From assembly GCA_003566635.1 (NCBI GenBank), contig PXCK01000109.1, positions 1 to 43,715 on the forward strand: a stretch of 43,715 bases of DNA, written 5' to 3'. A program made the translations under genes and the position numbers. Under the pieces are notes generated by a model. It saw only the letters and a program-made list of their open reading frames with translations, made no database searches and had not been told where the DNA came from. The stretch comes from Balneolia bacterium (GTDB lineage: Bacteria; Bacteroidota; Rhodothermia; Balneolales; Cyclonatronaceae). Shown piece by piece: positions 2,434 through 18,577 of the stretch. Position 1 is the first letter of the stretch, and every line of letters starts with the position of its first letter.

Positions 2434-5400
2434 CTAACCCAAGACGTTTTCAATGGTCGTTTTTATTTCTTCTTGAGTAAATGGTTTGTTAAGAAAAGCA
2501 TCCATTCCTAAGCGAGTAGCTTTTTCTTCATCTTCCTGCGTTACATTTGCAGTTATTGCAATAATGGGCGTTTTTAAGTCATTTGCAGCATCAAGCTTGC
2601 GAATTTTTTTTGTGGCTTCATAACCGTCACAAACAGGCATTCTTAAATCCATTAAAATTAAATCAGGCTTGTACTTTATATATAGATCAATTGCTTCTTG
2701 ACCGTTTTGAGCTTCAATAATTGCAGAGCCGGGATAAAATTTGTTAATTAAAGCTTTGAGAAGTGTCATGTTCAAGACCATATCTTCAGCAATTAAAAAT
2801 GTATAATTTTTAATATTGTCTTGCTTTGGCATATCCGACTCCAAAATATCCCTGTGTTCACCTGAGGTATCAATCTCTCCCAACAATTTGTACAAATTAC
2901 TTAGCAGCACCGGTTTGGGTACAATACCGGCAACATCATTCCAAATATTTGAATCTATACGTACAGGATAATCAACAATTATAATTTTCTCTTTATCAAC
3001 CAGGTTATTTAACATATTTAGATTTCTTACATCAAGCATCACAAAATCTCCGGGTTTTAACAACCTTGGTATAGTCTCCCTTTCAGCTTGGTGCGATGTA
3101 ACGACTTTAATACCGGTTCTGACAAGCCATTTTGCGATATAATCTGTGAGCAATTCCGATTCTGTGTATAAATACACGTTTTTGATATTTCGAATCGTAG
3201 GGATTTCAAATGGTACATCATTCGGAACTTCAACGGGTAATTTAAGCCAAAATATACTCCCGTTTCCTTCAATACTCTCAAACCCAATACTAGCGCCAAG
3301 ATTCCTGGCAATTTTTTGTGATATAGCCAGACCTAGTCCTGTACCCAATCGTCTGTTTGCTGATGTTGTTTCTGCTTGCATAAATGGTTGAAAGAGCGAC
3401 TCTTTAAGGTGGTCTGGAATACCTATACCTGTATCTTTGATCTCAAAAATAATTTCTATATCCCTTTGTTCCAACAACTCACTCTTCACGTTGAGTTCTA
3501 TGTGCCCCTCGTTAGTGTATTTAATTGCATTATCTAAGATATTAATAAGTATTTGTTTTAGGAGAATACCGTCAGTTACAAATTCGCAGGGCATATCAAG
3601 CTGGGGCTCAATAATCAGCTCAAGATTTTTTTCGATTAATTTATTTTGAAAAAGGACTGACAGCTCGCTAAATAAATCTTTTATTTCTATGGTGGAGAGG
3701 AGCAGGTTTACTGTTCCGGCTTCTAGTCGTGAAAAATCCAGGATATTATTTGCAAAAGAAAGCAGTGTCGCAGTTGCCGATTGGATATTCTCGTTAAATT
3801 TTTTCTGCTGATTGGAAAGGTTTGACTGATGTAAAAGATCGCTATAGCCAAGAATACTGTTGAGTGGCGTTCGTATTTCATGGCTCATATTACTTAAAAA
3901 AGCTCCTTTAACCTTGTTTGCTCGCTCGGCTTCGTTTTTAGCTTGTATTAAACTCTGTTCCAATCTGGCTCTTTTCCGCACGTTCATTACCATTTCAGCA
4001 AAAACTTTAAGGATATTTAATTCAGATTCTGAAAACTTTTTGTACTGTTTACATGAATCAAATCCAATACAACCTATGCACGTATTTCCATCCATTACAG
4101 GAATAGCAACCAAGCTTATAATACCTTGACTATGTAACACGTTCCTCATTTCAAGGTTCGAAAGGCTATTTACCTCTTCGATTATTACAACTTCCCCATT
4201 TTTGTGCTTTTCCTTCCAAAATGACCACGTATCTATTGGTACATTCTGTAAATTATTTATTTCAGGAGATATTCCATCTGCACACCATTCATAACTGTTA
4301 GTAGCTGTAGCATTGACCCAATCATAATCAAAAATGTATACACGGTCGGCTTTAACAAAAAGACCTATTTTTTCCAGAGCTTTGTTAATACCGGTATCAA
4401 GCTCGTTAGGTTTTAAGTTTATAAACTCCAAAACAATCTCAGTGAGTACGCTTTCAAGCTTGTATAGCTTATTAAGTTCCAATTCTGTATTCTTACGTTC
4501 TGTTATATCCTGAAATATTCCATAAAATCTGAAACATTTGCCATTTTCAAATACCGTATTCGCCTTTGTCCGCACCCATTTTTCATTTCCTTTGGCTGTT
4601 ACAATTTGAAGTTCAAGATCGTAGGGCTCTCCATATTTTAAGGCTCTATGAGCAGCTTGCTGTATTATTTTTCTACTTTCTCCCTCTTTATAGTAATTAA
4701 TTCCATCTGTTACAGATCTTTCTAATGGACCGACTTCTTCATGGATGTCTGCTGTAATTTGAGTCCAATACACTCTACCGGTTTCAACATCAACTTCCCA
4801 GCCACCCACTTTTGCCAGTCCCGCAGACTGCTCTAAAAATTCTTTCGTTTTTTCGAGTTCTTTCTTTGTTTGCACCAAACTGGTTATATCCCTAACGATT
4901 GAAACAATTGCGTCTTCTTTGGAGAATAAAATTCGTGCTTCATACCAATTTTCCCCGCCTCCAACTTTTAAAGGGTAAACAAAAATGGTATCGGTTTCGG
5001 TAGATAATGTTTTTTGAAGATTTTCCAGAACCATTTTTGCAAGATTATCAGGCAAAACTTCTGTTACATGCTTTCCTACTATTTCAATTTTGGGCTTAAA
5101 TAAATCTGCTGGATTTGGAGCATGTACATACCTGTAATATCCATTTTTATCCATTATAAAGAATAAATCCGGAAAAGCAGCTAACATCATATTGAATGCT
5201 TTTTGGCTACTTTGACTCTTCTCCTCGTGGACCTTCCTAATAGTTATATCATACCCCAGAGATTGAATTATAGGATTATGGTTAGGCTCGGAAATTAACC
5301 TATGTGTCCATTCAAGCCATAGCCTATCGCCACTTCTTGATTTCGCTTGATATTCACTTGGCCCTGAGAAGCCATTTAGAATAGCTTTTTCGATGTCAGC

Positions 5401-5910
5401 CTGAACTTTTTGAACCTCAGAAACTTCAATCAGGTCTGTTATTTTCAATCCAATAATTTCGTCTTTGGTTTTACCAAAAAAGGTAGCATAGGATTTATTA
5501 GCATAAATAATGGTCATATCCGGCCGGCACCTGCAAACCATTTCATTTTGGGTATCAAGAATATCCGAAAGGTTCACCAAGGCGTCACGTTCGGTTACAT
5601 GAAGTTGAAATAATCTTAAGGGTTCGTTTTGATCGTTACGAACTTCACTTTGATAAACCCTGTAGTAGCTATTAGGCTGGACATAAATTTGTTTGACATC
5701 ATTAGAATTCACATCACCTGTTGTGATATTTAGCGGAGAATTTGAAACCTCACAAATTTTTTCAAGCAGGTTGATATTATTCTTGTTACAAACTGCCTTT
5801 AGCTTGTCAAAATCATCATTTTTATCTAAAACCTCCTTTTTATCATTTAAAAGAACATAAGGGCTTACTAAATGCTTTTTTACCTGTTCCCAATTTTTGT
5901 CCGTTCTCAT
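2434..5910 (-). CDS. Hybrid sensor histidine kinase/response regulator (PAS-PAS-PAS-GAF-HisKA-HATPase-REC)
   Basis: This 1158-residue cytoplasmic kinase should autophosphorylate on His and pass phosphate to its own receiver. Reading in order: an N-terminal PAS-like region (about 1-110), three PAS domains (about 110-230, 235-355 and 360-475, two ending in the usual DITxRK-type motif), a GAF domain (about 485-645), then HisKA with MSHEIRTPL and phospho-acceptor H677. A HATPase follows (DNAIKYT, DTGIGIP, GTGLGLAI), then a degenerate receiver-like segment (about 920-1015) and a canonical REC domain with phospho-acceptor D1088 in LILMDLRMP. No membrane segment is visible, so the signal is sensed inside the cell. 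It starts 7 bp after the CHAT gene stops, implying co-transcription. No separate DNA-binding response regulator lies nearby, so the output partner is unknown. Confidence 0.92.
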   Translation of the reverse strand: MRTDKNWEQVKKHLVSPYVLLNDKKEVLDKNDDFDKLKAVCNKNNINLLEKICEVSNSPLNITTGDVNSNDVKQIYVQPNSYYRVYQSEVRNDQNEPLRLFQLHVTERDALVNLSDILDTQNEMVCRCRPDMTIIYANKSYATFFGKTKDEIIGLKITDLIEVSEVQKVQADIEKAILNGFSGPSEYQAKSRSGDRLWLEWTHRLISEPNHNPIIQSLGYDITIRKVHEEKSQSSQKAFNMMLAAFPDLFFIMDKNGYYRYVHAPNPADLFKPKIEIVGKHVTEVLPDNLAKMVLENLQKTLSTETDTIFVYPLKVGGGENWYEARILFSKEDAIVSIVRDITSLVQTKKELEKTKEFLEQSAGLAKVGGWEVDVETGRVYWTQITADIHEEVGPLERSVTDGINYYKEGESRKIIQQAAHRALKYGEPYDLELQIVTAKGNEKWVRTKANTVFENGKCFRFYGIFQDITERKNTELELNKLYKLESVLTEIVLEFINLKPNELDTGINKALEKIGLFVKADRVYIFDYDWVNATATNSYEWCADGISPEINNLQNVPIDTWSFWKEKHKNGEVVIIEEVNSLSNLEMRNVLHSQGIISLVAIPVMDGNTCIGCIGFDSCKQYKKFSESELNILKVFAEMVMNVRKRARLEQSLIQAKNEAERANKVKGAFLSNMSHEIRTPLNSILGYSDLLHQSNLSNQQKKFNENIQSATATLLSFANNILDFSRLEAGTVNLLLSTIEIKDLFSELSVLFQNKLIEKNLELIIEPQLDMPCEFVTDGILLKQILINILDNAIKYTNEGHIELNVKSELLEQRDIEIIFEIKDTGIGIPDHLKESLFQPFMQAETTSANRRLGTGLGLAISQKIARNLGASIGFESIEGNGSIFWLKLPVEVPNDVPFEIPTIRNIKNVYLYTESELLTDYIAKWLVRTGIKVVTSHQAERETIPRLLKPGDFVMLDVRNLNMLNNLVDKEKIIIVDYPVRIDSNIWNDVAGIVPKPVLLSNLYKLLGEIDTSGEHRDILESDMPKQDNIKNYTFLIAEDMVLNMTLLKALINKFYPGSAIIEAQNGQEAIDLYIKYKPDLILMDLRMPVCDGYEATKKIRKLDAANDLKTPIIAITANVTQEDEEKATRLGMDAFLNKPFTQEEIKTTIENVLG

Positions 5911-5917
5911 GGCTTAT

Positions 5918-8563
5918 TTAAATTCCGGTAATTACAAAAGGTGCCCAATGTACCGGGTGTTCAAAACCGGGTTGATTTTTGACATTGAGTCTTGCATTGC
6001 GCATAAGGTATGCATAGTTATTTTGTGATGTACTTGTGCCTATAGTTAAACCGGAATAAAATTCACGCATAACCATAGCTGCGCTTCTATCGAAAATACT
6101 CCACAAACTAACACCAACATTTCGTGCACCGGCGTATAAAAATGCTCTTTGAAGTCCCATCACACCCTCACCAGAGACTAATTTCCCAACACCTGTATTG
6201 CAAGCGCTTAGCATCACAAGTTCGCTATTTAACCGCAAATCATACATTTCTGTAAATCGTAGATAACCATCGTCATTTTCTTCATAAGAAAACAAAAGTC
6301 CGCTTAAATCAGGGATTACATCATTTATTGCGCCATGTGTTCCAAAGTGTAGATATCTGTATTGAGTAAGGTCTGCATTAAACACATGCGATTTTGAAGC
6401 ATCAGTACCGGAAATAACATCTGCATAACTCCCAAATTGTTCAGCAATAAACTGACCCTCTAAAACAGTAAATGGTAATGGGCGAACTCCATCTCTAAAT
6501 ATGGCAACAAAATCATTCGTTTTACCGAACGTTGGGTTCACAATGGCTTTAATTCGGGATGAACCTGATACAGGTCGGTTATACAGTAATTCTTTAACAG
6601 AGAGCGAGGGTGTATAACGGACTGTAATGGAATTAATTAAGTAATCATCATCAATTCGTAATAGATCAAGTGGGAGATAATTCAAAGGGCCGTCATTAAT
6701 CACAAGTAAATTTGAATAATCGTTTATTGGAAGATCGCCTAACAGCAGTTTTGATAACTCGTCTATTAGACCGTTTACTTCATCAATCGGTCTTACTTGT
6801 GTTATTTTAGCCCTAACCTCAGTTACATAATCTGCGAGCTTGCTGCTTGATGCATTAATTGGGTGAAAATAAAAGCCATTACGTGTTGTAAGCAAAGCAA
6901 ACGAATACTCCTCTGAAACACCAAATTCCAGAATAGCATCATTTCTACCAAGTTCTTGCTGAAACTGTCTGATTGAGGCGATAGGTAACTCCAAATTTGC
7001 AGTAAGACCCGGATTTTTGCTGTAGAATTCATCCGTTAGCACATTTAAACGAGTAAGAATTTCAGCTCTATCATTTAACAGATCATTACCTGCCTGGAGC
7101 CCCAACTCTAAAATCTTTCGGTCAATTTCCGCTAATTCAGCTCTAATCTCCTGAATAGCTTTTAAGTCATCACTTAAACCCTCCTGAAATTGTACAGGCA
7201 CATTACTAAGAATCAAGTCATCCCGAAAAGATCTGGCTCGTGCCATCTCGAGTATATCAGAAGCCTGTGAGTAATTGCCATCTTTAGCATATTCATATGA
7301 TAACATAACGAAAAATGGATGGTATAAGGTAAAAAAGCCAGATGTAACAGATTCGGAAAAACCAGTGTCCATCCGTTCTCTTTCAGTAGCAAGAACAGCC
7401 AACTCACTTACATTAAATGCTTCGTCTCTGTCAAGTTTAAATAAATTTCTGGCTCTTGACCAATAATTTACCGGTTGATGAACATCTACGGGGTTTAAAT
7501 CAAGATTTTCAAAAATCAGATTAAAATACTCTTCAGCATCATTGTATTTACCGGCTCTATGAAGTACATCACCTTTATTCCGTAAATAAACGACATTATT
7601 ATAAGAAATTTCTAAGTCTTCAAGATGTTCACCGGCAATTTCAATATACTCAAGCGCTACGTCGTGTTCTCCTATGGATGAATAAAAGTTACTAATTGTA
7701 GAATACCTGTTCCACCTAACCCTGCTTTCCATTCTTTCCAGATAAGGCAAATACTTTTGGTAATACTTCTGTGTATTATCAATATCTCCAAGCCCTTGGT
7801 AGGCAGTGGCTATATTAAAATAGGAGTCTGCCTTATGAGGCAGAGAACCAATTTCTTCGGCAGCTGCCAAAGATGTATAAAAGCTCGTTAAAGCCTGATC
7901 GTACAGACCTATTTGTTCAGAAATGCGTCCTCTTAAATTGGAAATAGAAATATAAAGTACGTCTTTGCTTTGGTTGTCGTATAGTTCAATTGCTTTTGCA
8001 ACATGATACAGAGCTCGGCTAAACTGCAATTGCTGACTGTAGAGCTGGGAAATTGTTATATGATTTATTGCAATAGGCACGTTACTGTCGTCCAGTTTTT
8101 CATTAAAAAAAATACTTTCAGTCAGATAGTCAATTGCACGGTCATATTCTCCTGTAACTCTAAATAAATTTCCTAAGTTGTTGTATACAGCACCCAATGA
8201 TTCATAGTTATCTTCTTCAAGAATGGTAAATGTCTTTCTGTAGTAATACTCTGCTCGTTCAAACTGACTAAGGCCAAGGTAGGAATGACCTGAGAGAAGG
8301 TAGCCCCATTCCAGTACATCCGGTTCATTATAGCGTTCCCCAAAGGAACGTATTACCGGTAAAATTTCAAGGGCTTGACTGAATTCACTTGCTCTTCGGT
8401 GAAGTATTGCGTCTTGAATGAGGGACTGGATAATTTCAAGGCTATCGGGACTTGAAACAAAAAAGATATTTTTATCATATCCCTCAGCATTACTACTAGC
8501 CTTGCTTAATGATGCAATTGGTAGTAACAGCAGCAATAATATTCCACTTAGTACACTTTTCAT
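5918..8563 (-). CDS. Exported TPR-CHAT (caspase-like) protein
   Basis: This 881-residue protein has an apparent signal peptide (about 1-24: MKSV, then a Leu-rich core), a long array of tetratricopeptide repeats (about 70-400), a helical linker and a C-terminal CHAT domain (about 560-881). CHAT is a caspase/separase-clan peptidase fold often attached to TPRs. The catalytic dyad is intact: H743 in HFGTHG and C788 in LSACNTG. It is probably an active cysteine peptidase, or a sensor using that fold, located in the periplasm or on the envelope. The target is unknown. It is the first gene of a pair with the hybrid kinase, 7 bp apart, so a shared signalling role is plausible but inferred. An AT-rich 180-bp gap with a terminator separates it from the upstream TonB receptor. 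Confidence 0.9.
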   Translation of the reverse strand: MKSVLSGILLLLLLPIASLSKASSNAEGYDKNIFFVSSPDSLEIIQSLIQDAILHRRASEFSQALEILPVIRSFGERYNEPDVLEWGYLLSGHSYLGLSQFERAEYYYRKTFTILEEDNYESLGAVYNNLGNLFRVTGEYDRAIDYLTESIFFNEKLDDSNVPIAINHITISQLYSQQLQFSRALYHVAKAIELYDNQSKDVLYISISNLRGRISEQIGLYDQALTSFYTSLAAAEEIGSLPHKADSYFNIATAYQGLGDIDNTQKYYQKYLPYLERMESRVRWNRYSTISNFYSSIGEHDVALEYIEIAGEHLEDLEISYNNVVYLRNKGDVLHRAGKYNDAEEYFNLIFENLDLNPVDVHQPVNYWSRARNLFKLDRDEAFNVSELAVLATERERMDTGFSESVTSGFFTLYHPFFVMLSYEYAKDGNYSQASDILEMARARSFRDDLILSNVPVQFQEGLSDDLKAIQEIRAELAEIDRKILELGLQAGNDLLNDRAEILTRLNVLTDEFYSKNPGLTANLELPIASIRQFQQELGRNDAILEFGVSEEYSFALLTTRNGFYFHPINASSSKLADYVTEVRAKITQVRPIDEVNGLIDELSKLLLGDLPINDYSNLLVINDGPLNYLPLDLLRIDDDYLINSITVRYTPSLSVKELLYNRPVSGSSRIKAIVNPTFGKTNDFVAIFRDGVRPLPFTVLEGQFIAEQFGSYADVISGTDASKSHVFNADLTQYRYLHFGTHGAINDVIPDLSGLLFSYEENDDGYLRFTEMYDLRLNSELVMLSACNTGVGKLVSGEGVMGLQRAFLYAGARNVGVSLWSIFDRSAAMVMREFYSGLTIGTSTSQNNYAYLMRNARLNVKNQPGFEHPVHWAPFVITGI

Positions 8564-14077: not shown

Positions 14078-15220
14078 TTATAGTGCGTTACTTATCTTAT
14101 CAACATAATCGAGTTTTTCCCAAGTAAACTCATCACGACCAAAATGACCATAAGCAGCAGTGTTTCTAAATACAGGCTTGGTAAGGTCGAATCTTTTAAT
14201 TATTCCACCCGGAGTACAGTCAAATACTTTTTTGACGGCATCAGCCAACTTTAAATCATCAACTTTACCGGTATTGTATGTATTTACTGATACGGAAACA
14301 GGTTCGGTAACACCAATAGCGTAGGCTAACTGCACAAGGCATTTGTCAGCAAGCTGAGCTGCTACGATATTTTTGGCAATATGACGGGCTGCATATGCAG
14401 CACTACGATCAACCTTAGTTGCATCTTTACCCGAGAATGCGCCACCGCCGTGGGCGCCGTGACCACCGTAAGTATCAACAATAATTTTTCTGCCTGTCAA
14501 ACCTGTATCACCGTGTGGACCACCAATTACAAAGCGTCCGGTTGGATTAATGTGGTAAATCGTGTTGGCATCTAAAAGATTGGCTGGAATCACCCTCGGG
14601 ATAAGGTGTTCCTTTACATCTACGTGAATTTGCTCAAGTGTTGCCTCTTCATCGTGCTGCGTACTCAAAACGATTGTATCAACACGAAATGGTTTGCCAT
14701 TTTCATCAAGTTCAACAGTAACCTGACTCTTACTGTCCGGTGCAAGATATGGCATAATGGTAGAGTTCTTACGAATATTTGCCAATTCCCGTACCAAGTC
14801 ATGAGACAACTGAATACTTAAAGGCATGAAGTTATCTGTCTCTGTACAAGCGTATCCAAACATCATTCCCTGATCGCCCGCGCCAATTGAATCGGACTTA
14901 TCTACACCTTGATTTATATCCGGGCTTTGTTGATGGATGGAAACCATAACACCGCAAGACTCAGAATCAAACCGGTATGTATCTTTCGTGTAACCGATTT
15001 CCTTAATGGTTTTTCTAACCGTTTCCTGAATGTCAACATAAGCTGAAGTTTTTACTTCACCCGAGATTACAGCCAGACCGGTAGTAACAAGTGTCTCAAC
15101 TGCAACACGCGAATTGGGATCTTGCTTAAGCATTTCATCCAAAATGGAATCTGAAATTTGGTCGGCGATTTTATCGGGGTGCCCCTCGGAAACGGATTCT
15201 GATGTAAATAGTCTTTTCAT
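14078..15220 (-). CDS. metK: S-adenosylmethionine synthase
   Basis: MetK condenses methionine and ATP to S-adenosylmethionine, the main methyl donor, in the cytoplasm as a tetramer. The 380-residue length is standard. Signature segments are intact: the ATP-binding start [15 protein letters not shown] (8-22), the methionine loop region [12 protein letters not shown], and the glycine-rich GGGAFSGKD with the following [16 protein letters not shown]. The first ATG is used. The upstream leader is about 100 bp, AT-rich, and has no visible SAM riboswitch. The gene has its own terminator, so it appears to be a single-gene unit. Confidence 0.97.
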
Positions 15221-15391
15221 GTATACTTATAAATGGAAGGGAGTAAAAATTTTCAAAGACTCGAAATATACTATTTTTACAATTAAATTTCTTTACCAAA
15301 ACGATATCAACCAATTGCTCTAATTAATTCGTTTTTTCTAAAAATTTGTAGCTATTTTGCACGACAAATTACGACTGAAGATCTCGCTTCT

Positions 15392-15676
15392 ATGCTAAAT
15401 ACAATTCTAATTTTTCTTGGTCTTTTTACAACAATAGTTGTTGGGTTAATGATAGTTGGTTTGGTCGTTAGACTATTCAGCCCTTCGAAAATTAAGCGAA
15501 CCAACAAATGTTCCAGTGAACATACTTTCTGTTATTTGACAAGAGCAAAGAAAAACAAGGCAGAACAAGTTTTAAACTTTTTTCTTGCAATTAGGATATA
15601 TCAATGTATGTACTGCAAAAAGAAATACGTGAGAGTTGCTCCTTTATTTAAAAAGAAAAAAAGCCGTACGTCTTAA
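15392..15676 (+). CDS. Small single-helix membrane protein with cysteine pairs
   Basis: I do not recognise this 94-residue frame. It has one strong N-terminal membrane helix (about 5-27), a basic linker, then cysteines spaced CxnC ... CxxC (KCSSEHTFC and QCMYC) with a lysine-rich tail, like a small zinc-ribbon module on the cytoplasmic side. Codon use is plausible and nothing opposes it on the other strand. Its stop codon TAA (15674-15676) lies inside the terminal TTAA of a mobile element, so the native C-terminus may have been cut or altered by the insertion. Confidence 0.55.
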   Translation: MLNTILIFLGLFTTIVVGLMIVGLVVRLFSPSKIKRTNKCSSEHTFCYLTRAKKNKAEQVLNFFLAIRIYQCMYCKKKYVRVAPLFKKKKSRTS

Positions 15677-15906
15677 CCCGAATTATTCACGAAAGCATGA
15701 AATTTAAATCTTATACTATTAAAAATATTGTATTTAGAAAAATACCACACTCACTCAAATTTGGGTGTCGTTAGCATGCTACAAAATTTCCATGCTAGCT
15801 GCGTTGAAGTTGAAAAATTCATGCTCAGGGTACTAAAGTACCTTCCGCTGATTTTCCACCTTCGCCTTGCTACCAAGAAAATTTTTTGGTGAATAATCCG
15901 GGTTAA
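15673..15906 (+). mobile_element. MITE-like element, copy 1
   Basis: This 234-bp copy runs from TTAACCCGAATTATTCAC to GTGAATAATCCGGGTTAA: 18-bp terminal inverted repeats differing at one base. It sits between two convergent genes, 8 bp from the ruvB stop. Internal features shared with the other copies are an AT-rich left part, a near palindrome around CACTCAAATTTGGGTG and a long right-hand hairpin. This copy has lost one base in the hairpin loop region compared with the others. There is no room for a transposase. Confidence 0.88.
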
Positions 15907-15913
15907 TTCAATA

Positions 15914-16927
15914 CTAACCAAATAACCCGCCTTCCGAACCCGGTAATTTCACTCCTAAATACTCAAAAGCCTTAGCCGTAGCCACCCTGCCTTTTGGCGT
16001 TCGCTGAATGAATCCTTCCTGAATTAAAAAGGGTTCGTAAACTTCTTCGAGAGTACCCTTCTCTTCGTTTACTGCAACTGCAAGTGTTCCGAGACCTACC
16101 GGTTTACCTTTGTATTGAGCAGTAAGTACATTCAGGATTCGAATATCCATTTCATCCAGTCCGTTTCTATCAACTTCAAGGGCATTAAGAGCTTTATCTG
16201 CTACCAAGTTTGTAATTTCGACTTCACCATCAACTTCAGCAAAATCCCGGGTACGACGTACTAAGCGATTAACAATTCTTGGGGTACCTCTACTTCTGCG
16301 TGCAATCTCATAGGAACCCTTATCAGATATACCAATATCCAAAATACCGGCTGTTCTTTGTGCTATAAGTTGAAGTAATTCTACTTCATAATAGTCCAAC
16401 CGTAAATCAATGCCGAACCTTGCCCTTAAAGGTGCCGTTAATAGGCCTTTTCTAGTTGTGGCACCGATAAGCGTAAAACGTTTAAGATCAATTTGCACAC
16501 TGCGGGCATTAGGACCGGAATCAATTAAAATATCAATTTTGTAATCTTCCATAGCCGAGTAGAGATATTCTTCGACAACGGGATTTAAGCGATGAATCTC
16601 ATCAATAAATAACACATCTCCTTCGCTTAAGTTGGTGAGCAATCCCGCAAGGTCACCGGGCTTTTCCAATACCGGTCCGGTTGTTGGCCTGAAGCTGACT
16701 CCCATTTCATTTGCAATGATAGAAGCAAGCGTTGTTTTACCTAAGCCCGGCGGACCCGACAGTAAAACGTGGTCGAGGGATTCGCCACGCATCTTAGCCG
16801 CCTTTATAAAAACAGAGAGGTTATCCAGAATTTTTTGTTGACCGATAAATTCTTGCAGTCGAAGTGGCCTCAGACTTTTCTCAAAGGCATTTTCTTTTAA
16901 ATCGGCATTTAGCAAGGGGTTTGACAC
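15914..16927 (-). CDS. ruvB: Holliday junction branch-migration ATPase RuvB
   Basis: RuvB is the hexameric AAA+ motor that, with RuvA, drives branch migration of Holliday junctions before RuvC cleavage. The 337-residue length is normal. Walker A is GPPGLGKT at 58-65, Walker [10 protein letters not shown] with D109-E110, and sensor/arginine-finger segments [21 protein letters not shown] follow. A C-terminal winged helix ends the protein ([18 protein letters not shown]). Neither ruvA nor ruvC is adjacent, as is common outside Proteobacteria. It is downstream of the sigma/anti-sigma-like pair with a 77-bp gap. Confidence 0.97.
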
Positions 16928-17004: not shown

Positions 17005-17868
17005 TTAGGGGTCAATTTCATAAGGAGAAATATCTTCAAACCCGGCACCATAAATATAGGAATCCAATATCCTTAACTGGCGAAAAGCTTCACGCTTAAA
17101 TGGTCCTTCAAAGCCATATGCCATGTGGAATGAATCCCGTGCATCTTCAATTTCTCCCAAAATCAATAAAGCATTGGCTCTGTACCACCAAGCTTTCTGA
17201 ATACGCAAGTCATCGTCAGATTTTTCTGCCAATTCAAGAAGTAATTCAGCAGACTCCTCATACATTCGAAGATTATAATAAAGAATACCTGCATTCATAT
17301 AAGCAATTTCAGTTCTGGGGTCGTCGGGATTTTCTCTAATAATCTCGAGATAGGACTCAAGGGCTAATTCTTTATCATTTTGAAAGGCTAGCATAAGTGC
17401 CATATCAAGGGAACCGGTAAGTTCATCGTCAGCAATAATTTCATCACTACGAAGAGCAGCAAGGGATTCCATTTCAAAAATATCTATCGCTTGTATGTAA
17501 GTAAGGCTATCTTGAAAAACGAGAATATTAGGGTCTTGCGGACTTATAACTCTAAGTTGGTTTATACCTATAACTAACGTTAGAACTGCTGCTGCTGCTA
17601 AAGCCCATTTAGTATAACTGCCAATGTAGCTAACCTTTGCTTCATTAGCCTGCTCTTTTGAGCCCTCTAAATCTACTTTTGAATACTGTACTTCTGACAG
17701 TTTGTTTTTTAAGGTTGCCGTAAAAACCAATTGATCATAAAAAGACGGGTTATCGAATAACCAAGCCCAAAAAGCTTCTTTTTCTTCTTTGGAAATATTT
17801 TTAGAAAGAAAATGATCAATTTTCTTTTGGGCTTCTATTTCTTTGTTTGATTTATTTGATGCTGCCAT
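17005..17868 (-). CDS. Single-pass membrane TPR protein, probable anti-sigma factor
   Basis: This 287-residue protein has an N-terminal cytoplasmic part (about 1-85), one membrane helix (about 86-103) and an exported C-terminal part with three or more TPR-like helix pairs (about 150-265). The layout, and its position 172 bp downstream of an ECF sigma gene on the same strand, match anti-sigma regulators. The N-terminal segment has a short FLSKNISKEEKEAFWAWL helix, similar to the FecR/anti-sigma N-terminus, but no zinc HxxxCxxC motif. The TPR domain outside the cytoplasm would then be the sensor. This role is inferred from context. Confidence 0.7.
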   Translation of the reverse strand: MAASNKSNKEIEAQKKIDHFLSKNISKEEKEAFWAWLFDNPSFYDQLVFTATLKNKLSEVQYSKVDLEGSKEQANEAKVSYIGSYTKWALAAAAVLTLVIGINQLRVISPQDPNILVFQDSLTYIQAIDIFEMESLAALRSDEIIADDELTGSLDMALMLAFQNDKELALESYLEIIRENPDDPRTEIAYMNAGILYYNLRMYEESAELLLELAEKSDDDLRIQKAWWYRANALLILGEIEDARDSFHMAYGFEGPFKREAFRQLRILDSYIYGAGFEDISPYEIDP

Positions 17869-18040: not shown

Positions 18041-18577
18041 TTATAATTTTTTTCGCACACATTCCTGCAGTTGTTTTTGGATACGGTGTCGTCTCACCCA
18101 AACGTTACTTTCGGATATATCAAACTTAGTGCCAATATCAGCAGCTCGGGCATCCGGGTTATTCAAAATGTAAGACATAAACCTTCTGTGGATTTCTTCT
18201 AACTTTTCCAGACAGAAATCTAAAATCTTTTTAAGCTCTTGATTTATAAAAATATCATAAGGGTCTTTTTGTTTGCTATCGAAGTCGGTTTGCTCAGTTT
18301 TCACCTCTTTTGTAGTTGCCCGGTATGTTTTTAGAAAATAGTTTTTTAAAATCTGTCTTGCGTAACCTCCTGCATTCTCCGGAATATCTTCCCTAACCTG
18401 AGCAACTTCCATCATTTTTAGTATGGTGTCTTGTGCACAATCCTCAGCATCCTGTTCACTTGCACTAAATGTAAACCTTAAATAAGATACCATAACTTTT
18501 AAAACCACAGGAGTTAGTCTGTTGATCTCTTTTTCATCTTTTTCGTAAATAGCCTTAAATAGTAAATCAAATTCCAT
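18041..18577 (-). CDS. ECF-type RNA polymerase sigma factor
   Basis: A 178-residue sigma-70-family protein with region 2 (about 20-85; QDAEDCAQDTILKMMEV as the region 2.2/2.3 core) and region 4 (about 120-175; helix-turn-helix AADIGTKFDISESNVWVRRHRIQKQL). The linker is short and there is no region 1 or 3, as expected for ECF factors. The downstream membrane TPR protein is its likely regulator. A TATATTTG motif, resembling the Bacteroidota minus-7 box TAnnTTTG, lies upstream near 18680, but no clear minus-33 TTTG accompanies it. Target promoters are unknown. Confidence 0.88.
   Translation of the reverse strand: MEFDLLFKAIYEKDEKEINRLTPVVLKVMVSYLRFTFSASEQDAEDCAQDTILKMMEVAQVREDIPENAGGYARQILKNYFLKTYRATTKEVKTEQTDFDSKQKDPYDIFINQELKKILDFCLEKLEEIHRRFMSYILNNPDARAADIGTKFDISESNVWVRRHRIQKQLQECVRKKL

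What the first reader, a model, noticed from the sequence alone, without database searches (positions are those of the whole stretch)
2434..8563. Exported caspase-like TPR-CHAT protein paired with a soluble hybrid histidine kinase
The CHAT protein has a signal peptide and intact His743/Cys788 dyad; the PAS/GAF hybrid kinase starts 7 bp after it stops and has no membrane segment. CHAT proteases are known for cell-death and defence roles inside cells; an exported version coupled to a cytosolic two-component protein is unusual. The two could form a signalling pair, though the topology gap (outside/inside) needs a missing link. The ECF sigma/TPR-membrane pair at 17.0-18.6 kb is another TPR-based envelope signalling unit in the same neighbourhood.
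Basis: partly seen in the sequence, partly recalled or inferred. Interest (0 to 1): 0.55.

Follow-up and report, generated by a model that had tools for sequence, protein, structure and literature searches.

The report
Exported CHAT protease with anti-sigma partner
This bacterium makes a caspase-like protease that it ships out of the cytoplasm; relatives keep the same kind of protease beside a membrane-spanning anti-sigma factor, which suggests a previously unrecognised way of carrying an envelope signal to the genes, while the neighbouring histidine kinase looks like a chance neighbour.

Summary
In detail: an 881-aa TPR-CHAT protein with an export-type N-terminus and intact His743/Cys788 ends 7 bp before a soluble hybrid kinase begins. 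The proposed pair does not hold: of 59 CHAT genes mapped, two have a kinase ORF within 1 kb. Exported CHATs recur beside such pairs: ASIG in 21 of 22 loci of the second Balneolales CHAT clade, and beside 19 of 38 CHAT ORFs in other Bacteroidota loci. In ASIG's periplasmic linker one Arg followed by a small residue is almost invariant (69 of 71 by pattern). The CHAT model superposes on Csx29, on separase and on DdvA, an anti-sigma factor that itself carries a CHAT domain. Best reading: a periplasmic caspase-type protease cuts a TPR anti-sigma factor at that Arg and frees an ECF sigma factor. Cleavage is inferred. The window's own pairing (8.4 kb apart) is weaker than the family's: related drafts hold the clade-A ECF/ASIG pair with no CHAT detected.

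The parts
5918..8563 (-). exported TPR-CHAT protease, 881 aa (groups with ftsY-linked CHATs of its family)
8498..8563 (-). signal-peptide-like N-terminus, residues 1-22; a cleavage site after A22 is my estimate
   Evidence: sequence
7283..8323 (-). TPR solenoid, about residues 81-427
5924..6727 (-). CHAT domain, residues 613-880
6335..6337 (-). catalytic His743 codon
6200..6202 (-). catalytic Cys788 codon
17005..17868 (-). ASIG: TPR-bearing transmembrane anti-sigma-like protein, 287 aa; likeliest partner/substrate
17674..17847 (-). ASIG N-terminal three-helix domain, residues 8-65, predicted cytosolic
17554..17619 (-). ASIG transmembrane helix, residues 84-105
17425..17553 (-). ASIG low-confidence linker, residues 106-148, predicted periplasmic
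17449..17451 (-). ASIG Arg140, nearly invariant; proposed P1 residue (L-A-A-L-R-S)
17050..17424 (-). ASIG TPR domain, residues 149-273
18041..18577 (-). ECF-type sigma factor, 178 aa (clade A)
14078..16927 (-). metK and ruvB, synteny anchors next to ECF-ASIG
2434..5910 (-). soluble hybrid histidine kinase; not conserved beside CHAT

Best explanation
The CHAT protein is a caspase-like protease with an intact dyad that works on the periplasmic side. It belongs to a Bacteroidota-wide set of exported TPR-CHAT proteases whose partner is a transmembrane anti-sigma factor: a cytosolic helical domain that holds an ECF sigma factor, one membrane helix, a flexible periplasmic linker with a lone Arg followed by a small residue, and a TPR domain. 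When an envelope cue, probably sensed by the TPRs, brings the two together or activates the protease, the CHAT domain cuts the linker after the Arg. The membrane stub is then removed by later proteases and the ECF sigma factor is freed. In this window the partner is most likely the ECF/ASIG pair at 17.0-18.6 kb. Shown by computation: export-type N-terminus, intact dyad, fold, gene linkage in the family, co-occurrence, correlated divergence, conserved Arg. Inferred: cleavage, its site, the cue, the later steps, and the pairing in this particular genome. The hybrid kinase is a lineage-specific neighbour.
For: (1) Clade-B CHATs of Balneolales, 22 loci: 20 picked by protein length, plus L058 and L059, which supplied the ASIG queries. 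ASIG within 1 kb in 21 of 22; a divergent ECF gene in 17 of the 17 whose ECF side is not cut by a contig end (16 by script, L070 by reading its frames). (2) PF12770 in 61 of 118 Bacteroidota genomes; in 40 loci that I picked from that list, 38 CHAT ORFs were recognised, 19 with ASIG within 5 kb, 18 of those also with ECF. Named examples: Bizionia algoritergicola, Marixanthomonas spongiae, Spongiivirga citrea, Agaribacillus aureus, and a Calditrichaeota MAG. (3) ASIG hits with E <= 1e-20 occur in 13 of 32 CHAT-positive genomes against 1 of 56 without PF12770. The model held rows from 7 of those 13; without these 7 it is 6 of 25 against 1 of 56 (Fisher 0.003). Of the 15 hits not in the model, 9 lie within 5 kb of a CHAT. 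(4) R[SGANDT] within 45 residues after the ASIG membrane helix: 69 of 71 (linker shuffles: mean 43.7, maximum 55 in 2000), and 18 of 18 in loci not used to build the model, 17 of these at the aligned site. Arg140 is one of four columns of 90% or more in A3, at 24% mean identity. Two anti-sigmas whose outer domain does not look like TPRs keep it (L195, L197). (5) CHAT and ASIG distances correlate over 32 triads (r 0.52, 0 of 5000 permutations; 17 same-genome paralogue pairs r 0.79). (6) Fold: Csx29 Z 30.4 (rmsd 9.6, 525 aligned), separase 25.2 (3.6, 311), DdvA 24.9 (7.9, 575); a profile of nine anchored CHATs finds DdvA by sequence (E 2.6e-7) with His and Cys in place. (7) H/C dyad 81 of 81. 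(8) The window's ECF and ASIG fall in clade A.
Against: No cleavage data. In the window CHAT and ASIG are 8.4 kb apart, with other genes between. Of 30 other Balneolales loci with a CHAT outside clade B, 13 have ECF/ASIG within 8 kb, all 13 in one family (f4), so that proximity may be inherited synteny; in the window's family it is 27 kb (G007) or on other contigs. The CHAT of L097, the one directly beside ECF-ASIG, falls in another ftsY-linked subgroup than the window's. Four Balneolales drafts (G023, G040, G042, G045; 67-88% complete) have ASIG (E <= 1e-28) and ECF (E <= 1e-57) but no PF12770 match, and the ASIG of G045 (L308) keeps the Arg: either CHAT was missed in incomplete drafts or this pair can work without it. 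The window's CHAT lacks the C-terminal anchor. 87 of 124 CHATs of 700 aa or more outside Balneolales have no ASIG nearby. Nine of ten ASIGs with no CHAT in their locus have the Arg. At the aligned site L217, L297 and L379 have Lys. Part of the Mantel correlation will be species phylogeny.
Confidence: 0.55

Rival explanations
1. The window's CHAT is a periplasmic protease for some other task (its orthologues follow pgsA-ftsY); only clade-B and other anchored CHATs serve anti-sigma factors, and the ECF/ASIG pair in the window is unrelated to it.
For: pgsA-ftsY-CHAT order in the window's family without ECF/ASIG nearby (L041-L045); no C-terminal anchor; only 13 of 30 such loci have ECF/ASIG within 8 kb; four drafts have ASIG and ECF without PF12770.
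Against: CHAT-ECF-ASIG directly adjacent in L097, though its CHAT is of another subgroup; the clade-A and clade-B ECFs are each other's nearest paralogues in these genomes (next matches drop from about 1e-30 to 1e-14), and clade B is tightly CHAT-linked; A-type ASIGs carry the same linker Arg.
Confidence: 0.27
2. CHAT and hybrid kinase form a signalling pair in this lineage.
For: 7-bp gap on the same strand suggests co-transcription; L098 has a kinase fragment 71 bp upstream of a CHAT.
Against: 2 of 59 CHAT genes; no kinase beside the CHATs of L041-L046 in its own family; opposite compartments.
Confidence: 0.07
3. CHAT binds the anti-sigma TPR domain as a sensor or adaptor without cutting it; the linker Arg is structural.
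For: No cleavage data; the Arg mostly lies 15-30 residues after the membrane helix.
Against: The catalytic dyad is kept in 81 of 81; the Arg persists with an outer domain that does not look like TPRs (L195, L197); the linker is predicted with low confidence, as flexible stretches are.
Confidence: 0.08
4. Exported CHAT is a defence or cell-death effector.
For: Recalled roles of CHAT/caspase-like effectors.
Against: PADLOC gives only weak TPR and chance hits; conserved gene order beside pgsA-ftsY; matches in 131 of 146 relatives.
Confidence: 0.03

Closest known systems
Csx29/TPR-CHAT - Csx30 - CASP-sigma (type III-E CRISPR, Craspase)
   Same: TPR-CHAT protease, sigma-factor inhibitor as substrate, ECF-like sigma factor; closest solved fold. 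PMC10028731: abstract and passages seen.
   Different: RNA-guided by Cas7-11; Csx30 is not described as a membrane protein in the passages seen, and no Csx30 residue was essential for cutting. Here the protease looks exported and the linker Arg is conserved.
DdvA transmembrane anti-sigma factor (8rot, 8rw5; Myxococcus xanthus, organism recalled)
   Same: Titled an anti-sigma factor, named a CHAT domain-containing protein; matches the window CHAT by fold and a profile of nine anchored CHATs by sequence, His and Cys aligned.
   Different: One polypeptide of 991 aa; here anti-sigma and TPR-CHAT are separate genes. I saw PDB titles, molecule name and one HMM alignment, not the structure paper.
DegS-RseA-RpoE (recalled; named in a passage of PMC10028731)
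   Same: Protease of the envelope side, transmembrane anti-sigma factor, ECF sigma factor.
   Different: DegS is a serine protease with a PDZ domain (recalled); here a caspase-like Cys protease with TPRs.
ECF54 group
   Same: CHAT-domain proteins in ECF gene context; proteolytic control proposed (PMC8999054, passage seen).
   Different: Described there as acting without an anti-sigma factor; here a membrane anti-sigma factor is present and carries the candidate site.
Separase (C50)
   Same: Fold (Z 25.2); P1 Arg (PMC4357240, table passage seen).
   Different: Eukaryotic; cuts cohesin (recalled).

Membership tests
CHAT peptidases (PF12770) | CHAT domain above cut-off | tested here: met
   172.5 bits against a cut-off of 24
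CHAT peptidases (PF12770) | His/Cys dyad | tested here: met
   H743, C788
Membrane anti-sigma / exported protease systems (RseA-DegS type) | one-pass membrane protein with N-terminal domain and outer domain, encoded beside an ECF gene | tested here: met
   2 of 18 family members match zf-HC2, not the window's
Membrane anti-sigma / exported protease systems (RseA-DegS type) | exported protease gene linked to the pair | tested here: inconclusive
   clade B 21 of 22; window 8.4 kb apart
Membrane anti-sigma / exported protease systems (RseA-DegS type) | anti-sigma binds the ECF factor and is cut by that protease | not testable with these tools
   needs biochemistry
Craspase (Csx29) | partner Cas7-11 and crRNA | not tested
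   genome not searched for Cas7-11
Craspase (Csx29) | works in the cytosol (recalled) | tested here: inconclusive
   export-type N-terminus by hydropathy and model, no predictor run
ECF54 systems | no anti-sigma factor | tested here: not met
   ASIG beside the ECF gene
CHAT-kinase signalling pair | conserved adjacency | tested here: not met
   2 of 59 CHAT genes
Anti-phage defence | match to a known defence model | tested here: not met
   PADLOC, weak TPR and chance hits only

The most novel reading that the evidence does not exclude
A phylum-wide envelope-signalling system in which a secreted caspase-type protease acts as the first protease on a TPR-bearing transmembrane anti-sigma factor, cutting after one conserved Arg in its periplasmic linker; Csx29-Csx30 and the DdvA fusion would be an RNA-guided and a one-piece version of the same logic.
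Probability: 0.5. Interest if true: 0.85.

Novelty: new variant of a known kind. Interest (0 to 1): 0.7.

Why it matters
It would give exported bacterial CHAT proteins a concrete job, name their substrate and cut site, and add a caspase-type enzyme to the proteases that open ECF sigma pathways. It also suggests that the CRISPR-linked Csx29-Csx30-sigma system shares its protease/anti-sigma/sigma logic with a widespread envelope system. Cultured flavobacteria carry compact triads, so the idea can be tested directly.

Tried and rejected
Kinase pair: searched the kinase's sensory part in 59 relatives; PAS/GAF hits are widespread. Defence: PADLOC, rejected. The ASIG fold search returned TPR, designed and chaperone structures at the top, so its N-terminal domain was not identified by fold. 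phmmer with one divergent CHAT found nothing in PDB. My regular expressions for the dyad missed many true motifs; those two columns are discarded and replaced by the alignment count. The first gene caller hid one ECF gene (L070), found by reading its frames. Literature: ten searches listed no paper that I recognised as describing an exported CHAT protease acting on an anti-sigma factor in Bacteroidota; I saw listings and passages only, the library holds open-licence papers, and the main ECF classification paper is not held.

Rows and biases: L078 is the clade-B locus without ASIG (7-kb contig). L051 and L052 (cut CHATs), L086 and L224-L228 (no CHAT ORF recognised) are not in the counts. L194 has a weak ASIG hit (4e-4) not counted. 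Two of 73 ASIGs (L085, L294) had no membrane helix in the called ORF and were set aside. L217 is among the 69 of 71 only through an Arg inside its outer domain; L379 is among the 18 of 18 only through another Arg. The expanded ASIG/ECF models include sequences from those same loci, so those counts are partly circular; with the Balneolales-only models fewer were seen. A3 contains 12 rows taken beside CHATs of 7 of the CHAT-positive genomes, which inflates the raw comparison; I give the count without them. 'Without PF12770' for most of the 56 is inferred from their absence in the positive list, whose negatives are not all printed. L290-L309 were fetched because of ASIG or ECF hits (some as orphans), so totals are not unbiased samples. 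L201 and L203 are near-identical; one was dropped.

Full report
What is there. The genome is an unnamed 2.85-Mb draft (87% complete) with two CHAT matches, the window's and one on contig C101. The signal-peptide-like start is present in nearly all Balneolales relatives and in 0 of 72 cytosolic control proteins. The predicted structure (mean pLDDT 85.9) is a TPR solenoid joined to a caspase-like CHAT region, with low confidence right after the N-terminal helix.

The kinase is not a conserved partner. Relatives of the TPR-CHAT protein (E <= 0.001) occur in 131 of 146 related genomes. In the first set of mapped loci, 59 CHAT genes, a histidine-kinase ORF lies within 1 kb of two: the window's, and L098, where it is upstream and cut by the contig end. 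In the window's family the related CHATs of L041-L045 follow pgsA-ftsY and have no kinase beside them. The window's CHAT groups with these (100/99).

What does travel with exported CHATs. One CHAT clade of Balneolales (clade B, 100/99) has, in most members, a signal-like start and a C-terminal membrane helix. It sits between a divergent ECF sigma gene and a convergent gene that I call ASIG. I picked 20 such loci by protein length from the list; L058 and L059 came in with the first set. ASIG is within 1 kb in 21 of 22. An ECF gene is present in the 17 whose ECF side is not cut by a contig end. In nine clade-B loci outside the largest family (f4), including the window's own genome, a receiver-only response regulator lies 4-70 bp from ASIG; it was not found there in f4. 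The remaining CHATs, mostly ftsY-linked, include the window's; they form at least two groups whose mutual position is weakly supported. Of 30 such loci besides the window, 13 have the ECF/ASIG pair within 8 kb, all in f4; it is directly adjacent in L097, whose CHAT is in a different group from the window's. In trees of ECF and of ASIG, copies beside clade-B CHATs separate from the others with 100/99, and the window's copies fall with the others (clade A). In 59 relatives, ASIG matches at E <= 1e-20 occur in 55 and ECF matches at E <= 1e-20 in 56.

Results against a tight link for clade A. Four Balneolales drafts (G023, G040, G042, G045; 67-88% complete) have ASIG and ECF but no PF12770 match, and the ASIG of G045 keeps the linker Arg (L308). 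They may lack CHAT only because they are incomplete, but the clade-A pair may also work without it.

Beyond the order. PF12770 is found in 61 of 118 Bacteroidota genomes. From that list I fetched 40 loci outside Balneolales; 38 CHAT ORFs were recognised; 19 have ASIG within 5 kb and 18 of these also ECF. A separate scan of named genomes gave 79 loci; 18 hold an ASIG, 13 of them outside Balneolales, including cultured Bizionia, Marixanthomonas, Spongiivirga and Agaribacillus, and a Calditrichaeota MAG; the cyanobacterial CHAT loci have no ASIG. Outside Balneolales a C-terminal membrane helix is found in 32 of 37 ASIG-linked CHATs against 15 of 87 others (Fisher 3e-13). ASIG matches with E <= 1e-20 occur in 13 of 32 CHAT-positive genomes against 1 of 56 without PF12770; leaving out the 7 genomes that supplied rows to the model, 6 of 25 against 1 of 56 (Fisher 0.003). 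Of the 15 such hits that are not model rows, 9 lie within 5 kb of a CHAT and 6 do not. CHAT and ASIG distances correlate across 32 triads (r 0.52, 0 of 5000 permutations; part of this will be species phylogeny) and across 17 same-genome paralogue pairs (r 0.79, not tested for significance).

ASIG looks like an anti-sigma factor. It is encoded beside an ECF gene, has one membrane helix about 85 residues in and an N-terminal three-helix domain, and two of 18 family members (not the window's) match the zinc-finger family PF13490, which I recall as an anti-sigma domain. Its outer part is a TPR domain. The stretch between is predicted with low confidence, consistent with a flexible linker, and contains Arg140 in the window protein.

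The linker Arg. In alignment A3 (22 sequences, mean identity 24%) four columns reach 90%, and one is this Arg. Of 71 ASIGs with a membrane helix, 69 have R followed by S, G, A, N, D or T within 45 residues after the helix; shuffled linkers give a mean of 43.7 and never more than 55 in 2000 trials. One of the 69 (L217) has Lys at the aligned site and qualifies through another Arg. The two exceptions are L297 (Lys) and L296, from the one non-Balneolales genome that has ASIG without PF12770. In the 18 ASIGs of the named loci, examined after the motif had been defined, all 18 fit the pattern and 17 at the aligned site (L379 has Lys there). L195 and L197 have, by eye, a different outer domain but keep F-R-S. 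Clan CD proteases most often prefer a basic P1 residue; separase, metacaspase and gingipain R take Arg (PMC4357240, passages). This makes the Arg a good candidate cut site; it does not prove it.

Fold and precedent. The CHAT model aligns best to Csx29/TPR-CHAT (Z 30.4, rmsd 9.6, 525 aligned), then separase (25.2, 3.6, 311) and DdvA, titled a transmembrane anti-sigma factor (24.9, 7.9, 575). A profile of nine anchored CHATs (six of clade B) finds DdvA as its top PDB match (E 2.6e-7) with His and Cys aligned. So anti-sigma and TPR-CHAT appear in one protein elsewhere. Csx29 cuts Csx30, an inhibitor of an ECF-like sigma factor (PMC10028731, abstract and passages). A review notes CHAT proteins near ECF54 genes and proposes proteolytic control without an anti-sigma factor (PMC8999054, passage). 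The idea that CHAT proteases open ECF pathways is therefore not new in itself; an exported one paired with a membrane anti-sigma factor carrying a conserved Arg was not described in anything I found in the ten searches named under Tried and rejected, in an open-licence library.

Mechanism and certainty. For anchored CHATs the functional link of exported CHAT, ASIG and ECF is, in my judgement, about 0.85 likely; cutting at the Arg about 0.6; that the window's CHAT acts on the window's ASIG about 0.45. The weak point is the window's own kind of CHAT: no anchor, looser linkage, drafts with the pair but without a CHAT, and a position next to ftsY in its relatives that could reflect another job.

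Noticed in passing
L059:6543-7115 and eight other clade-B loci (L058, L068, L070, L076, L302-L305): A receiver-only response regulator lies 4-70 bp from the clade-B anti-sigma gene in families f1, f3 and f5 but was not found there in f4: a possible two-component input to the same module.
   Followed up: partly
L323, L327, L329, L339, L350, L363: CHAT genes of Chloracidobacterium, Calditrichaceae, Acidobacteria, Lysobacterales and Thermoanaerobaculia MAGs have an ECF match within 1 kb but no ASIG match: perhaps the ECF54-like arrangement.
   Followed up: no
L205, L206, L209, L214: CHATs of other Rhodothermia with extra hydrophobic segments and no ECF/ASIG match nearby; in L205, L206 and L214 a neighbour begins with a RecF-like sequence (by eye).
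   Followed up: no
window:2130-2162: Perfect 15-bp inverted repeat (AAACCTGACAGGTTT-CGT-AAACCTGTCAGGTTT) followed by more T, about 270 bp beyond the kinase gene's end; terminator-like on the + strand.
   Followed up: no
L195:9068-9778(-), L197:1597-2319(+): Anti-sigma-like proteins with a non-TPR, possibly Ig-like outer domain (by eye) beside a CHAT; they keep the F-R-S linker site.
   Followed up: partly
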